Assembly (NCBI GenBank): GCA_023665205.1
Contig: JAMPEJ010000005.1
Span: 1 to 64,000 of the forward strand
Reading direction: 5' to 3'
Length of the DNA stretch: 64,000 bases
Source: Corallococcus sp.
GTDB lineage: Bacteria > Bacillota > Clostridia > Christensenellales > CAG-314
A program made the translations under genes and the position numbers. Position 1 is the stretch's first letter. Each line of letters begins with the position of its first letter. The notes beneath the pieces were generated by a model. That model did not search any database. It had not been told where the DNA came from and saw only the letters and a list, made by a program, of their open reading frames with translations. Below are positions 34,805 to 42,141 of this stretch, in pieces.

Positions 34805-36034
34805 TTAATTTTGCAACATCCATTTAGCATAAATACCGTAACCGCGAGTGGGATCGTTTACAAAAACGTGCGTTACCGCGCCGACAAGTTTGCCGTTTTG
34901 CACTATCGGGCTGCCGCTCATTCCCTGCACTATTCCGCCGGTTATTTCCAACAAACGTTTATCGGTAACGTGGATAACCATTCCCTTGTCGCCTTTGGTA
35001 GTTTGGCGGTTGGCTTTAACGATTTCTATATCGAAATACTGCGGTTCTCCGCCGCTCACGGTACAATAAATTTGCGCTTTGCCTACCGCAACTTCCGATA
35101 CGTCCGCAACGGGTACCGTTTGTTTACAAAACGACGGCAAAGCGTTGAACGCGCCGAAGGCGCCGAATTTGTTGTTAAGATACAAACTGCCGATACGTTT
35201 TTCAAAAGAAAACGTTCCTTTCAATTCGCCGGCGGCACCGCGCTTGCCCTTGTTGACTCCGTTGATCGTGCAATTGAAAACTCCGCCGTTGTCGCACGCC
35301 ACGATATTACCGTCGGGATCTGTTATAGGGTGACCGAGACTTCCGAACTTAAGATTTTTACGCACGTAAGTAAGCGTTCCGATGCCGCTGGAAGAATCGC
35401 GCGTCCACAACCCCAAACGGTATTGTCCCGCCGTCAAATCGGCCTGAGGAGTTACCGTCGCGGTACGCGTTTCGCCCTGACGGATATATTTTACGGCGAG
35501 TGGTTTTCCTTCGCTTTGAGAGGCGATTTCCACCAACTTTGCGGAACTGAATATTTTGCGGTTATCCAATTCTATTATAACGTCGTTTATTTGCAGTCCG
35601 GCAGTATGAGCAGGACAAACAAGTTGGCTTTCGCTATTGAAAAACTCGTTTAGACCTATTACCGTTACTCCGTCGCCGTCTATCGTAAGCCCCAAAGGAT
35701 ATCCGCCCAAATACACCTGTTCGGAAATTTTTTGCGAGGAAGCGCCGCAAAATAAATCGGCAACGTCGTCGATCAGTTGCGATAAGTCGTCTGCGTCAAC
35801 GCCGGACCGAGAAAGAGACTGAGGTGACGTTGGCACGGCGAGGAATGCATCGTTTTGAACGGACTGTCCGATTGACGCCGAATCTTGCTGTAAGTCTGCT
35901 GCGCTCGTTTGTGTAGCAAGACAAATGTCTTGCGTAGAGGAATATGCGCAAAAATACGGCGCAAATCCCACTGCAAACAGAAAATTGCAACACAGCAAAC
36001 ACAATACAAATATTACGGTTAACTTAACTTTCAT
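34805..36034 (-). CDS. spoIVB: SpoIVB serine peptidase (sigma-K checkpoint)
   Basis: A 409-residue S55 peptidase. ATG 36034 has AGAGGTG 6 bases upstream and is preferred to a GTG at 36043. An N-terminal membrane helix (~3-30) is followed by a linker of about 85 residues, a PDZ domain (~120-195; AGLQINDVIIELDNRK), and the peptidase with SLGHPITD (catalytic His) and VQGMSGSPIVQNGKLVGAVTHVF (catalytic Ser). SpoIVB is secreted from the forespore and cleaves SpoIVFA to trigger pro-sigma-K processing. A sigma-G-type promoter lies just upstream. It follows recN, the conserved recN-spoIVB order. Confidence 0.95.
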   Translation of the reverse strand: MKVKLTVIFVLCLLCCNFLFAVGFAPYFCAYSSTQDICLATQTSAADLQQDSASIGQSVQNDAFLAVPTSPQSLSRSGVDADDLSQLIDDVADLFCGASSQKISEQVYLGGYPLGLTIDGDGVTVIGLNEFFNSESQLVCPAHTAGLQINDVIIELDNRKIFSSAKLVEIASQSEGKPLAVKYIRQGETRTATVTPQADLTAGQYRLGLWTRDSSSGIGTLTYVRKNLKFGSLGHPITDPDGNIVACDNGGVFNCTINGVNKGKRGAAGELKGTFSFEKRIGSLYLNNKFGAFGAFNALPSFCKQTVPVADVSEVAVGKAQIYCTVSGGEPQYFDIEIVKANRQTTKGDKGMVIHVTDKRLLEITGGIVQGMSGSPIVQNGKLVGAVTHVFVNDPTRGYGIYAKWMLQN

Positions 36035-36061
36035 CCGGTACACCTCTTATGCTCGTAGGTC

Positions 36062-36493: not shown

Positions 36494-38206
36494 TCAATTC
36501 AGCGTGCGTTTGTAATCGTTTGACCAATCCAACAGTTCCTTTGCGGAGACTATCGCATGTTCCCCTACGCTGCCCATAAGTCTGGCTACTTCCTTTGCGC
36601 GCGCTTCCTCTCCGCAAAGAGGCGTAACTAACGTATGAGTGCGTCCGTCGTATTCTTTTTTTTCTATATACAAAGCGGCATCGCTCATTGCCATTATCTG
36701 AGGCAGATGAGTAATTACTATACATTGAAAACCGTCTTGCGAGCGAGAAGAAACGTTGGCAAGTTTTACCGCCACCATTTGCGCCATATTGCCGGATATA
36801 CCCGTATCGATTTCGTCAAATACCATCGTCGGAATTTTTTCCGCAAGAGCGGTAATATTTTTGACTGCCAACATAAAGCGCGACATTTCGCCGCCGGAAA
36901 TAACTTTGGACAGAGGCTTTAGCGGCTCCCCTACGTTTGCCGACATCAAAAATACCGCCTTATCAAAGCCGTCGGAAGAGGGCGACTCTCCGTACTCGTC
37001 CAAACCCGGTTTTTCGTTGAAATCAACTTCAAATTGCGTGCCGCGCATTCCGAGGTCAGCCAGTTCCTTCATTATCCTATCTGCCAAAACTTTTGCAGCC
37101 CTGCGGCGTTCCGTCGATTTGCATTCCGCAAGCGAGTACATTTCCGCAAGCACTTGCCGTTTTTCCTCATTGAGAGCGGCAATTGCCTCCGACGAGTGAG
37201 ACAGAGTTTGATACTTAGTTTCCGCTTCCGTAAGGAAAGCAAGCGCATCTTTCACGGTGCCGCCGTACTTGCGCTTTATGGACTTTATCTGTTCCAAACG
37301 CGCCTCCGCTTTCTCCTGTTCGGCGGGAGAAAAGTCCATTGAAGACAAAATGTTTTCCAACGTGTCGCATACGTCCTGCGCTTCTAAGCGGGAAGAATCC
37401 AAACGCTTGCCTAATTCGTCAGCGCTTTGTTCGTAAGCGGATATTGTGCCGAGATTGTTTTGGGCCAAAGACAATTGGCTTATCGCACCGTTTTCGCCGC
37501 TTAAGCATTCCGTAGCCTGAGAAAGGGCAACGGTAATCTTTTCCAAGTTCATCATCCGCTTATGGGTTGCCAAAAGCTCCGCTTCTTCCTCCTCGGAAAG
37601 GTCTGCATTTGCAAGTTCTTCTATTTGGTATTTCAAAATATCCAACAAACGCTCGCGCTCGGCATCGCTGCCGCCGAAAGACTTAAGTTGACGGTTGATA
37701 GAAGCAAGGCGCGGCGCAAGTTCGTTTTTAAGGCGAAGATCCGCGCCGTTGAAATTGCAAAAACTGTCTAATACCGCAAGTTGATTTTTTTCGTTGAGCA
37801 AAGCCAGATGCTGCCCCTGACCGAATATATCTACCAATTCTGCCGCTACTTCCTTTAATATAGCAAGCGTTGCCTGTTTGCCCTGTATTCTTATTTCGTT
37901 TTTGCCGGAAACGGTCATTTTGCGCGACAGCAAAATTTCCGTATCGGAACCGTAGCCGTATTCTTCAAGTTTTTTCAGCACGGGACAATTCTCGTCAACC
38001 TCGAACAAAGCGGTCACGTCCGCCCAATCTTCGCCGTATTTAATCATGGTTTTATCCGCTCTGTCACCCAAAACAAAGGCCAACGAATCGATTATGATAG
38101 ATTTGCCGCTGCCTGTTTCTCCGGACAAGACGGTAAGACCGTTGGTAAACTCTATTTCCAAGCGGTCGATCAGCGCTATGTTGTTGATTTCAATGCTTTT
38201 TATCAT
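36494..38206 (-). CDS. recN: DNA repair protein RecN
   Basis: A 570-residue SMC-like ATPase: Walker A SGETGSGKS at 28-36, a long central coiled-coil region (~170-345), an ABC signature (KVISGGEMSRFMLA), and Walker B MVFDEIDTGISG. RecN gathers broken DNA ends in double-strand break repair. Length and motif order are typical. It follows argR by 105 bases, the classical Firmicutes argR-recN pair. No LexA box was seen in front of it. Confidence 0.97.
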   Translation of the reverse strand: MIKSIEINNIALIDRLEIEFTNGLTVLSGETGSGKSIIIDSLAFVLGDRADKTMIKYGEDWADVTALFEVDENCPVLKKLEEYGYGSDTEILLSRKMTVSGKNEIRIQGKQATLAILKEVAAELVDIFGQGQHLALLNEKNQLAVLDSFCNFNGADLRLKNELAPRLASINRQLKSFGGSDAERERLLDILKYQIEELANADLSEEEEAELLATHKRMMNLEKITVALSQATECLSGENGAISQLSLAQNNLGTISAYEQSADELGKRLDSSRLEAQDVCDTLENILSSMDFSPAEQEKAEARLEQIKSIKRKYGGTVKDALAFLTEAETKYQTLSHSSEAIAALNEEKRQVLAEMYSLAECKSTERRRAAKVLADRIMKELADLGMRGTQFEVDFNEKPGLDEYGESPSSDGFDKAVFLMSANVGEPLKPLSKVISGGEMSRFMLAVKNITALAEKIPTMVFDEIDTGISGNMAQMVAVKLANVSSRSQDGFQCIVITHLPQIMAMSDAALYIEKKEYDGRTHTLVTPLCGEEARAKEVARLMGSVGEHAIVSAKELLDWSNDYKRTLN

Positions 38207-38310: not shown

Positions 38311-38760
38311 CTAGATAAGTTGGTTTATTCTGACGGCAACCTTGTCGGCGTCGGCTGCACGCGGACAAACGACCAATACCGAATTTTTATCGGCAAACAT
38401 ACCGAGTATTTTTTCCAAGCCCAACTGCTCTATTGCGCCCGAAACGGTGGATGCGCTGTCGGCTATGGTTTTGATCACAACCAAATTTTCCGCCGTCACA
38501 ACGGAAACCACGGCTTCTTTCAATATCGTCATAAGTTTACCGGAGATTTTAACCTCAACGCGCTGCTGCGTAACGTATTTGTAGTTACCGTCGGCGTCCT
38601 GAGTTTTGACAAGCCCGAGTTCCTTTATATCGCGGGAAACGGTTGCCTGCGTAACGTCGAAACCTGCGTCGCACAGTGCCGTTACCAGATCGTCCTGAGT
38701 TTCGATATTGCGGCGCGATATTATATCTAAAATTTTAGATTGCCTTGACGAGCGCGACAT
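38311..38760 (-). CDS. argR: Arginine repressor ArgR/AhrC
   Basis: A 149-residue protein with a winged-helix DNA-binding domain (residues ~5-70; QATVSRDIKELGLVK is the recognition motif) and a C-terminal hexamerisation/arginine-binding domain (VISTI-like core 'LVVIKTIADSASTVSGAIEQLG', then FADKNSVLVVCP). It controls arginine metabolism. In the ArgR C-terminal domain the arginine-contacting 'GT.AGDDT' segment is here MFADKNSVLV, so the ligand contact is altered. This may reflect a different co-repressor affinity. Confidence 0.93.
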   Translation of the reverse strand: MSRSSRQSKILDIISRRNIETQDDLVTALCDAGFDVTQATVSRDIKELGLVKTQDADGNYKYVTQQRVEVKISGKLMTILKEAVVSVVTAENLVVIKTIADSASTVSGAIEQLGLEKILGMFADKNSVLVVCPRAADADKVAVRINQLI

Positions 38761-39053: not shown

Positions 39054-39467
39054 TTACAGCCGACAGTTTTCTATCAAACCGTCAATTTGCTCTTTAAGCA
39101 GTGTTTCAAGTTGCTTGTAGTGGTCGAACGCATAGATATCCAATTCGTCAAAGGCATCTATATCGTCTTCGTGCTCCGAATCATTCCCCATAGACACGTA
39201 TATATCGTAAGCAGCATTGAAATTTTCCAACAAGTCCGTTGGCAAAACGGAACGCAAATCTTCGACCCGTTTGTCAAGGCAGTCATACAGGTCGTCGCTA
39301 ACAGAAAAAAAGTCAAAATGCCCGCTGCCACCGAAATTTCCGAACATATTCATGCAGTTATAGTATTCAAACAAGGAGTCGTACGGGGCAGGCAATTTTC
39401 CCTTACGGAATGCTTTTTGCGCCTTGTAATACCAATCGTTGTCCTTAGACTTTTTCCAAAACGACAT
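39054..39467 (-). CDS. DMP19/DUF4375-like small acidic protein
   Basis: A 137-residue protein starting at ATG 39467 behind GGGGG. It is strongly acidic. The segment DSLFEYYNCMNMFGNFGGSGHFDFF (~29-53) with the later DLRSVLPTDLLENFNAAYDIYV resembles the DUF4375/DMP19 pattern (a helical domain with 'nGGf.qff' and a run of helices). DMP19 of Neisseria mimics DNA, and related proteins serve as immunity genes beside polymorphic toxins. The resemblance is moderate. It sits alone between oapA and argR, with its own terminator and no toxin partner visible. Confidence 0.5.
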   Translation of the reverse strand: MSFWKKSKDNDWYYKAQKAFRKGKLPAPYDSLFEYYNCMNMFGNFGGSGHFDFFSVSDDLYDCLDKRVEDLRSVLPTDLLENFNAAYDIYVSMGNDSEHEDDIDAFDELDIYAFDHYKQLETLLKEQIDGLIENCRL

Positions 39468-39528
39468 AAAAATCCCCCTACACACGTGTTGCTAGCGTTT
39501 TATTAGACGGTATTAAAGACAAATAAGC

Positions 39529-39556: not shown

Positions 39557-40324
39557 TCAACCTTTTTTGGAAAAGACGCTCAAAATTTTTGCTACGGCAA
39601 ACACGATGCTGTTGGCTTTTTTGACGGCAATGCCTTTACCCGCGGCTTTAAGCGTTATTGTCGCCATGGAAATGACTGCGTAAACGGACACAGAGACCCA
39701 AAAAACCGCAGTGCTGTTAAGGGCCGCTTCCGCTGCGATTTCCGCCGCTATCGTTGCGGCGCACACACCGGAAACGATACCGCAAATATCGCCGACTATA
39801 TCACAGCATACGGAGGACACAATATCGCGCTTTTTGGCAAGACTTACTGCAGTTTTGCCGCCCTTTACCTTGCGGGAAGCCATTGCAAGAAAAGGACCGA
39901 TGTCGCAAGACGTTGCCGCAGTGCCGATCATATCAAACAAAACGCCTAACACAAGTATTACTACCGTTATAACGATTGCAACCCACAACTGAGCATTAGT
40001 AAGCGAGAAGGAAGACAGCGCATTGACGGCAAACGCCAGCAAAAGCGAAATTACCAATGCTTTAAGCGGCCACAAGTTACGTTTTTTCTTCTTTTTATCC
40101 GAGTGTTGAGCGGACTTTTCCGCCGCGGCAGATTTGTCTACCTTTTTTTCTGAGGGATCGACGGCAGACGTCAACTGCGCCGCAGACGTTTGTTGCGCGA
40201 CGTCCGATCGATCAAGATGCTCCGCTTTTTCAGCAGATTCGTTTACGGACGCGTCGTTTAATTGCGTTTCTTTTAGAGTTTCCTTTCCGTCGCTTCGCGG
40301 GACGGGCGCATCGCTGTTTTTCAT
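39557..40324 (-). CDS. oapA: OapA-like membrane protein (OLE RNA-associated)
   Basis: A 255-residue protein from ATG 40324 (GGAG upstream). A hydrophilic N-terminus (~1-85) rich in Glu, Ser, Asp and Lys ends in a basic KKKKKRN run, followed by four hydrophobic helices. The central segment DMIGTAATSCDIGPFLAMASRKVKGG and CCDIVGDICGIVSG matches, as I remember it, the 'G.A.T....PF.aMA..KV.GA ... DVIGDICGI.SG' pattern of OapA-family proteins. OapA binds OLE RNA at the membrane in Bacillus halodurans. The gene lies directly downstream of the candidate OLE RNA, as it does there. The long acidic extension is unusual. Confidence 0.8.
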   Translation of the reverse strand: MKNSDAPVPRSDGKETLKETQLNDASVNESAEKAEHLDRSDVAQQTSAAQLTSAVDPSEKKVDKSAAAEKSAQHSDKKKKKRNLWPLKALVISLLLAFAVNALSSFSLTNAQLWVAIVITVVILVLGVLFDMIGTAATSCDIGPFLAMASRKVKGGKTAVSLAKKRDIVSSVCCDIVGDICGIVSGVCAATIAAEIAAEAALNSTAVFWVSVSVYAVISMATITLKAAGKGIAVKKANSIVFAVAKILSVFSKKG

Positions 40325-40546
40325 AATTCTCCGTAGATATATTTCGTCTGCACTACTGTTTACAAATAAACGGCAAACATTTTTGCATATATTAAAACTT
40401 GACGAAATAACGCCAAGCAAAAAACTTTCCGCAAGCGCAAAGATAATTTTACCCACAAACAACAAAATCCATCCCGCGCAATGCGTTTGTATAACGCGCG
40501 AATTAACGACGGCACAACTACCGCCGTAAAACGCGATAAACGTTTC

Positions 40547-41148
40547 AAAAAAATTCGGTGGTGACCTGTCGGATAAACCTTACGGCATAGGTTCAGTAGG
40601 ATTTCCCACGCAAGAACTTCCCGTCGCCGAAGAAGCAGTTTCCTTTTGATCTCGCGTAAACGTCGTTACCGACCGTTTAACTGAATCGCCACTTAGTCCG
40701 TACTATAATCCCCGACAAGCCTGGTTTGCAGCCTAGAAGATTTCCTTTGCAGCAACCGGCACATTTTAGTTTCTTTTGCAAAATTCATTTTGTAAAGCAG
40801 TCGACGCGTCATTGTCGGCCAACAGATGCGAGTCGTTCTTTACTCCCAAAATTCCACTCAAAACAGGCTACTCTGTACACAGCGTTTGCACCGCATAGCA
40901 GGTTTAATCTCAGCGAGTAATCAGAGAGATGTGCTCTCAAACCACCCGGTAGAGTCTCCGCGAATGATGGGGATAGAATGCATGCCATTGCACCTTACCC
41001 ACCAATCTTAACTTCCAGCACAAGCCCCCGTTTGGGCAACGAAAGCCAGCACAAGAAACTTCATCGATATGCCCGTCGACGGTCTTTTAGTCCCGTCTTC
41101 AATGCCCGATTACTGACTAGAATACTGCACCACCGATATTTAGTTGTA
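40547..41148 (-). ncRNA. ole: OLE RNA (ornate, large, extremophilic RNA)
   Basis: About 600 bases that contain no credible ORF on either strand but keep mixed composition. The ends are complementary: CGGTGGTG near the 5' end (plus coordinates 41128-41135) with CACCACCG at the 3' end (40556-40563), the latter followed by AATTTTTTT, giving a closing helix and terminator-like tail. A sigma-A promoter precedes it. Internal hairpins include GACGG/CCGTC near the 5' end, and CTTGTGCTGG occurs twice, 31 bases apart. The order nusB-folD-xseA-xseB-ispA-RNA-oapA is that of known OLE loci. OLE binds OapA at the membrane and affects stress tolerance. The identification rests on locus and length, not on alignment to the family model. 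Confidence 0.85.
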
Positions 41149-41154
41149 GAATAA

Positions 41155-41325: not shown

Positions 41326-42141
41326 TCAAAAATTGCGGGCAAGATTTTTCTTCGCGTATTCTTTGATAAAGCCCAAATCGTACTGCGGCAGACTGTCGCA
41401 AAGCGCTAGCACGTTGTCGGTCAGTTTTTCAGCGTATTCGCGGCACTCGCGCTCGGACAAAACGTCCAAGAAAGATTTTTCGCACTTTTCCGCGTCCAAC
41501 AAGTCGTCCACCACTTGATAAGCAATGCCGAAGTCGGTAGCGATCTGTTCGAATACGGCAACTTCCTCTTCCGAAGCATGTCCGGCAAGCGCGCCGCAAA
41601 CGATAGCCGCTCGGATAAGATCACCGGTTTTGTGCACGGCAACTTCCTTTGCATCGTCAAAATTCTTGGTTTCTGCAAACAAGTCCAAGCACTGTCCGTA
41701 AATCATGCCGCCCACACCGCTCTTTGCAAAAAGATATGCGCAAGCCTTTTGGTAATAAGTATCCGTCAATTTGCCGCTAAAAACGATTTCTGCGGCAAGG
41801 TTAAGCAATGCGTCGCCTGCCAAAGTCGCCGCAGCCTCGCCGTATTGCAAGTGGCACGTGCGCACTCCGCGGCGCAGTTCGTCGTTGTCCATAGCGGGCA
41901 AATCGTCGTGAATAAGAGAATACGTGTGTACGTATTCCAACGCAACGGCTAAGATAAAAGCGTTTTCCGTCAATTTTTTGCCTACCGCTAGCGCAGTGTT
42001 AAGCAAAAGCAACGGACGAAACCGTTTACCTCCGCTGAACAGACTGTATTCCATTGCCTGCTGCACTTTTCCGCCCTCTTTAGGCAAATATTTGCGCAAA
42101 TATTCTTCGATTATTTCCAAAGTGATCTTACTGTTCTTCAT
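41326..42141 (-). CDS. ispA: Farnesyl/geranylgeranyl diphosphate synthase
   Basis: A 271-residue polyprenyl synthase. First Asp-rich motif HDDLPAMD (Asp79, Asp80, Asp85) and a second YQVVDDLLD near 205 bind the allylic diphosphate through Mg. GGKRFRP at 38-44 and KTGDL near 175 are further family landmarks. The product chain length cannot be fixed; the two residues inserted in DDLPAMD (DDxxxxD) are typical of bacterial FPP/GGPP synthases. The start overlaps xseB by 14 bases. dxs and tlyA, which often follow, are missing, and the OLE RNA occupies the spot. Confidence 0.94.
   Translation of the reverse strand: MKNSKITLEIIEEYLRKYLPKEGGKVQQAMEYSLFSGGKRFRPLLLLNTALAVGKKLTENAFILAVALEYVHTYSLIHDDLPAMDNDELRRGVRTCHLQYGEAAATLAGDALLNLAAEIVFSGKLTDTYYQKACAYLFAKSGVGGMIYGQCLDLFAETKNFDDAKEVAVHKTGDLIRAAIVCGALAGHASEEEVAVFEQIATDFGIAYQVVDDLLDAEKCEKSFLDVLSERECREYAEKLTDNVLALCDSLPQYDLGFIKEYAKKNLARNF

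What the first reader, a model, noticed from the sequence alone, without database searches (positions are those of the whole stretch)
40547..41148. OLE RNA locus with its own promoter and complementary termini, next to an oapA-like gene
A roughly 600-base noncoding stretch lies between ispA and a four-helix membrane protein resembling OapA, in the order nusB-folD-xseA-xseB-ispA-RNA-oapA known for OLE loci. The sequence shows a TTGCAT-N17-TATAAA promoter, CGGTGGTG at the 5' end complementary to CACCACCG at the 3' end, and a T7 tail. OLE is one of the largest structured bacterial RNAs, and its function is only partly understood. Here dxs and tlyA are missing from the locus, so the RNA and oapA form a compact two-component unit. 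The oapA-like protein has an 85-residue charged extension that could be an extra RNA-binding arm.
Basis: partly seen in the sequence, partly recalled or inferred. Interest (0 to 1): 0.85.

Follow-up and report, generated by a model that had tools for sequence, protein, structure and literature searches.

The report
Full-length OLE RNA with OapA
The window holds a complete copy of OLE, a known large bacterial RNA that works at the cell membrane, next to the gene for its membrane partner; the find itself is ordinary, but relatives that keep the partner after losing the RNA point to the part of the protein that probably grips the RNA.

Summary
Window 40542-41149 (minus strand) matches Rfam OLE (RF01071) over its full length at 442.4 bits (threshold 50). 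The 255-aa protein encoded just downstream is OapA: OapA homologues follow OLE in 30 of 31 loci checked (the 31st contig ends), the DxxxD motif is invariant, and the predicted fold matches CNNM/CorB. The genome also encodes OapB and OapC and has no MpfA, so the RNA and OapA are not a stand-alone two-component unit. The promoter is conserved across the genus. The long OapA tail is mostly variable and predicted disordered. dxs really is missing from this locus (it lies on another contig), but the genus normally keeps it there. This is a new member of a known kind.

Two by-products are less expected. Most close relatives start OLE with a small 5' hairpin of changing sequence, which this species lacks. 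And 54 of 228 OapA-bearing genomes in the order sample gave no OLE match; five examined loci show ole absent from between ispA and oapA. In two of three such lineages OapA has lost one segment, the basic TM2-TM3 loop, and kept the rest. This suggests that OapA works without the RNA and that this loop binds it.

The parts
40542..41149 (-). OLE RNA gene (ole), full length
   Evidence: cmscan RF01071, model 1-616 of 616, 442.4 bits against gathering 50, E 1.4e-126; the only copy in the genome
41156..41185 (-). Promoter TTTGCA-N18-TATAAA (or TTGCAT-N17-TATAAA); leader of 20 nt before GGTGGTG
   Evidence: Sequence; TTTGCA-N18-TATAAT/TACAAT at the same place in most relatives of the genus. Start site inferred at about the conserved ACAACTAAATA
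41129..41135 (-). 5' strand of the terminal helix, GGUGGUG
   Evidence: Pairs with CACCACC at 40556-40562; compensatory changes in relatives
40556..40562 (-). 3' strand of the terminal helix, CACCACC, followed by GAATTTTTTT
40546..40552 (-). T7 run after the terminal helix, possible termination or 3'-end processing site
   Evidence: Sequence; T-rich in almost all relatives; function inferred
39557..40324 (-). oapA, 255 aa: predicted disordered N-terminal tail (1-83), four predicted TM helices, DxxxD motif 175-179, basic TM2-TM3 loop 144-157
   Evidence: OapA homologue downstream of OLE in 30 of 31 loci; CNNM 21.1 bits, below cut-off, as published for OapA; AlphaFold2 model; top PDB folds MtCorB and CNNM/CorC
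41326..42141 (-). ispA (neighbour upstream of ole)
39054..39485 (-). 143-aa ORF of unknown family in the place where the genus has dxs
   Evidence: No NCBIfam or Pfam match; dxs-like ORF at this place in the relatives examined
38311..38760 (-). argR (conserved OLE-cluster neighbour)
   Evidence: NCBIfam arginine repressor, E 3.5e-43, below the curated cut-off
36494..38206 (-). recN
   Evidence: TIGR00634, E 3.4e-139
34805..36043 (-). spoIVB
   Evidence: TIGR02860, E 7.2e-100

Best explanation
This is a functional, full-length OLE gene with its dedicated partner gene oapA in an uncultured gut Clostridia genome. It is transcribed from its own promoter directly after ispA, possibly also by read-through from the operon as described in H. 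halodurans. The roughly 600-nt RNA probably closes on itself through the terminal GGUGGUG/CACCACC helix, forms a dimer as the solved OLE RNAs do, and is held at the membrane by OapA. OapA docks the RNA most likely through its cytoplasmic basic TM2-TM3 loop (PFLAMASRKVKGGK, residues 144-157), while its membrane core with DxxxD and the conserved lysines does the ion-related work that CNNM-type proteins do. OapB and OapC, both encoded elsewhere in the genome, bind the 3' and kink-turn regions. Shown here: RNA identity, gene identities, synteny, promoter conservation, terminal pairing, and loss of the loop in two OLE-less lineages. Known from the literature: membrane localisation, dimerisation and partner binding for other OLE RNAs. 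Inferred: expression and function in this species, and the role of the loop.
For: RF01071 442.4 bits full length. OLE in 71 of 101 relatives and directly upstream of OapA in 30 of 31 loci, including this one; cultured species such as Ruminiclostridium sufflavum and Thermosyntropha lipolytica carry the same pair. DxxxD invariant in 30 OapAs. CorB/CNNM fold. OapB 7k9b and YbxF 4lck are the top PDB matches of the two partner genes, each at the operon position I recall for ybzG and ybxF. CorC_HlyC proteins in 13 of 71 OLE+ and 22 of 30 OLE- genomes, and none in this one, in line with the published anticorrelation (PMC11332333). The palindromic GGCC in GUUGGCCGAC fits the L9.3 kissing loop of the solved dimers (PMC12286853). 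The loop is the only conserved block lost when OLE is absent: 2-5 of 11 positions kept in five f6/f28 copies against 8-11 of 11 in 33 OLE-linked copies, with 14 of 14 core positions kept.
Against: No expression data. The host is a gut bacterium, not an extremophile (although gut clades with OLE are already published). P6 lacks the GGAGG/CCUCC mimic that binds bS21 in H. halodurans (GGUGGG/CCCCAUC here), so that partner may not bind. In the f8 lineage, which also lacks OLE, the loop is still mostly intact (8 of 11), so loss of the loop is not immediate. The core positions were chosen after seeing the data; the unselected list is.
Confidence: 0.93

Rival explanations
1. The ole copy is decaying and no longer functional in this species, because dxs has left the locus and the 5' hairpin of the genus is gone.
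For: dxs relocated; no 5' hairpin in this leader, unlike most relatives.
Against: Full-length 442-bit match with conserved loops, well inside the range of its genus; promoter, linker, terminal helix and T-run kept; OapA keeps the full basic loop (11 of 11), which degenerates in two of three lineages that lose OLE.
Confidence: 0.04
2. The stretch is a protein-coding or other regulatory region and the OLE match is superficial.
For: Small ORFs of 61-64 aa exist on the opposite strand.
Against: E 1.4e-126 over sequence and structure together; none of the 14 control genomes matches.
Confidence: 0.005
3. A reduced RNP: OLE plus OapA with its long tail replaces OapB and OapC.
For: Long charged N-terminal tail; published variant-OLE clades lack OapB and OapC (PMC11332333).
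Against: OapB and OapC homologues are encoded in this genome at their usual operon positions; the RNA scores as full length and keeps the apical GGCGAC loop in the region that binds OapB; the tail is variable in length and sequence in the genus.
Confidence: 0.04

Closest known systems
OLE RNA, full-length class (RF01071; H. halodurans, C. acetobutylicum, C. botulinum)
   Same: Full-length covariance match, same helices and conserved loops, ispA upstream and oapA downstream, argR-recN-spoIVB nearby.
   Different: Gut commensal host; dxs has left the locus; no SD/anti-SD mimic in P6; promoter 20 nt from GGTGGTG instead of the 6-17 nt seen outside the genus.
OapA (CNNM-like OLE-associated membrane protein)
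   Same: DxxxD motif, four predicted TM helices, basic cytoplasmic loop, CorB-like fold, adjacent to ole.
   Different: 83-residue variable tail before TM1, the longest of 30 compared; L027 is nearly as long (82).
MpfA/CorB (CNNM-CBS-CorC magnesium exporters)
   Same: Shared CNNM-like membrane domain.
   Different: No CBS or CorC_HlyC domain; DxxxD present; CorC_HlyC proteins absent from this genome.
[quoted passage not shown]
   Same: Gut bacteria with small genomes; OLE next to OapA.
   Different: Those score lower and largely lack OapB and OapC; this one is full length with all three partner genes.

Membership tests
OLE RNA (RF01071) | Score above the Rfam gathering threshold over the whole model | tested here: met
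   442.4 bits against 50, positions 1-616
OLE RNA (RF01071) | Adjacent oapA and ispA-side gene cluster | tested here: met
OLE RNA (RF01071) | Terminal helix joining 5' and 3' ends | tested here: met
   Compensatory changes at 3 of 7 pairs among 31 loci
OLE RNA (RF01071) | Dimer contacts (A-rich L4, kissing loops, palindromic L9.3) | tested here: inconclusive
   CUAAAAG loop and palindromic GGCC present in sequence; dimerisation itself not testable here
OLE RNA (RF01071) | Abundant RNA of about 600 nt at the membrane | not testable with these tools
   Needs RNA-seq, northern blot or imaging
OapA | CNNM-like membrane fold without CBS/CorC domains | tested here: met
   the Foldseek E-values are modest (8e-3) but the first six hits are all CNNM/CorC
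OapA | DxxxD motif | tested here: met
   D175-I-V-G-D179, invariant in 30 sequences
OapA | Binds OLE RNA | not testable with these tools
   Needs a binding assay
MpfA/CorC | CorC_HlyC domain | tested here: not met
   No PF03471 match in the genome; PF01595 finds only OapA, below cut-off
OapB | Similarity to solved OapB and position between map and infA | tested here: met
   7k9b top hit, E 1.5e-6; L045 5163-5465
OapC (YbxF) | L7Ae-like protein between rpoC and rpsL | tested here: met
   4lck top hit, E 1.8e-6; L035 4052-4291; PF01248 above cut-off

The most novel reading that the evidence does not exclude
OapA has a function independent of OLE RNA. In this order at least two lineages lost ole from between ispA and oapA and kept oapA, and OapA then lost only the basic TM2-TM3 loop. 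The loop would therefore be the RNA-docking site, and OLE a regulator added onto an ion-handling membrane protein. This qualifies the published statement that OLE and OapA may never occur independently.
Probability: 0.55. Interest if true: 0.65.

Novelty: new member of a known kind. Interest (0 to 1): 0.4.

Why it matters
OLE is one of the largest structured bacterial RNAs and its biochemical function is still open. One more full-length copy changes little by itself. The comparison it prompted gives two testable handles: natural OapA proteins without the RNA, which can be used to ask what OapA does alone, and a specific loop predicted to bind the RNA. The 5' hairpin suggests that RNA stability or start-site structure is under selection in this genus.

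Tried and rejected
Pfam and NCBIfam do not name this OapA (CNNM only, 21.1 bits, below cut-off); identity rests on synteny, DxxxD and fold. The sigma-70 scan found no promoter, so support is comparative only. PF00467 (KOW) found only NusG in the genome, although OapB turned up by operon position and PDB match. Apparent double, short or split OLE matches in G014, G019 and G073 lie at or near contig ends and look like assembly breaks, not extra copies. The 831-nt OLE of G069 has longer peripheral helices at three places, not a clean intron. Ribosomal protein bS21 was not searched for in the genome.

Full report
Identity. The minus strand at 41149-40542 matches the Rfam OLE model end to end (442.4 bits, E 1.4e-126, gathering score 50). 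It is the only copy in the genome. By the published score bands (390 bits and up for full length, PMC11332333, made with a related but not identical model) it is a full-length OLE, not one of the shortened variants.

Anatomy. The 5' GGUGGUG and 3' CACCACC pair. The seven pairs are mostly invariant among 31 aligned loci, but several carry compensatory changes: L004 has C-G for U-A, L011 has A-U for the last G-C, L014 has A-U for the first G-C, and L015 has two double changes (L015 was re-registered by one base by hand). A T7 run follows. The Rfam consensus leaves these termini unpaired; the published models number a P1 helix in the 3'-side domain that I take, from memory, to be this one. The conserved loops, including the GGCC palindrome of the L9.3 kissing loop described in the solved dimers (PMC12286853), are present.

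Promoter. A consensus scan alone finds nothing significant. Comparison does: in the genus, TTTGCA-N18-TATAAT or TACAAT lies about 40 nt upstream of GGTGGTG, and the window has TTTGCA-N18-TATAAA at the matching place, 20 nt upstream. Outside the genus, TATAAT usually lies 6-17 nt from GGTGGTG. Most genus leaders carry between the -10 box and the linker ACAACTAAATAAAA a hairpin of variable sequence (for example GAGCGAAAGCTC, GAGTGAAAACTC, UUCGGACGUUUACGUCCGAA). In 24 leaders of this clade, 20 fold better than shuffles at p < 0.05. That count includes the window's own leader, whose weak fold (p 0.038) is a different pairing that involves the -10 box, so I do not count it as the hairpin; L048 and L050 also lack it. 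The hairpin would sit at the extreme 5' end of the transcript; protection from 5'-end-dependent decay is my inference.

OapA. P0001 (255 aa) follows OLE. An OapA homologue follows OLE in 30 of 31 loci, the exception being a contig end. D131, D175, G178, D179, K226 and K230 are invariant in 30 sequences. AlphaFold2 gives a confident four-helix membrane core (most blocks above 85) and a tail with low confidence up to about residue 70. The first six PDB folds are archaeal CorB and bacterial CNNM/CorC, as published for H. halodurans OapA. The tail varies from 6 to 83 residues before TM1 in 30 homologues, and this species has the longest. Only K5-R/H-NLWPLKA next to TM1 is conserved in the genus.

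Other partners. OapB: L045 5163-5465, between map and infA, top PDB match OLE-associated protein B (E 1.5e-6). OapC: L035 4052-4291, between rpoC and rpsL, top PDB match YbxF (E 1.8e-6). No MpfA-type protein is found.

Neighbourhood. In ten related loci from the genus and family, the ORF after oapA looks like dxs by its start; in this species dxs is on contig C9 and a 143-aa ORF without a family match stands in its place. So the compact locus is a local rearrangement. Named relatives are uncultured gut Clostridia from rabbit, deer, sheep, goat and chicken, including Ca. Limihabitans stercoravium and Ca. Heteroclostridium caecigallinarum.

OapA without OLE. Among 101 relatives, 71 have OLE and 76 have OapA; 70 have both and 6 have OapA only. 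The six were rechecked at E up to 10 over the whole genome with no OLE, and their oapA flanks were scanned with Rfam. In five of the six, oapA sits directly after ispA, with no room for a 600-nt RNA, and is followed by dxs (neighbours named by eye from their sequence starts and order). In a sample of 396 genomes of the order, 54 of 228 OapA-positive genomes gave no OLE match: 26 in family f6 (none of which has OLE), 19 in f28, 2 in f8 and 7 elsewhere. Only two candidates per genome were scored in that OLE search, so 54 is an upper estimate. The tree places the OLE-less OapAs in at least two groups among OLE-linked ones, on long branches in f6 and f28.

What changed in them. Of the positions conserved in 33 OLE-linked OapAs, those lost in the five f6/f28 copies cluster at residues 144-157, the PFLAMASRKVKGGK loop between TM2 and TM3; DxxxD, the conserved lysines and the glycines stay. 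Scored over 11 loop positions, OLE-linked copies keep 8-11, f6/f28 copies 2-5 and f8 copies 8. In G090, which has two OapAs, the copy beside OLE keeps all 11 and the other keeps 3. A positive cluster on the cytoplasmic face of OapA has been suggested to bind OLE (PMC12265935); these natural losses support that and narrow it to one loop. The limits: seven sequences from three lineages, and the core set used for comparison was chosen after seeing the data.

Anticorrelation with MpfA. CorC_HlyC proteins occur in 13 of 71 OLE-positive and 22 of 30 OLE-negative relatives, in line with the published trend; not corrected for relatedness.

Verdict. The finding is right in substance and ordinary in kind: a new full-length member of a known RNA class with its known partners. 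The side results about OapA carry most of the interest.

Noticed in passing
L120, L121, L123, L124, L125 (genomes G045, G047, G075, G076, G097): oapA directly after ispA with no OLE in between or elsewhere in the genome; 54 of 228 OapA-positive genomes in the order sample gave no OLE match.
   Followed up: partly
P0001 residues 144-157; L120, L122, L123, L125, L126: The basic TM2-TM3 loop PFLAMASRKVKGGK is the main conserved block lost in OLE-less OapAs of families f6 and f28 while the membrane core is kept.
   Followed up: yes
Upstream of OLE in L016, L026, L028-L030, L040, L053, L054, L056, L057, L062 and others: Small 5' hairpin of variable sequence between the -10 box and the linker ACAACTAAATAAAA, absent from this species.
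   Followed up: partly
L126 and L122 (G090, G067): A second OapA-like gene just upstream of an L20-leader-like element, a sub-threshold Rfam match.
   Followed up: partly
L127 with L130 (G069); L128 (G053): oapA found on a different contig from ole.
   Followed up: no
L130 647-1477: An 831-nt OLE with three enlarged peripheral helices.
   Followed up: partly
window 39054-39485 (-): 143-aa ORF without a known family in the place where relatives carry dxs.
   Followed up: partly
window P6 of OLE, about 40965-41010: No GGAGG/CCUCC Shine-Dalgarno mimic, which binds bS21 in H. halodurans; GGUGGG/CCCCAUC here.
   Followed up: no
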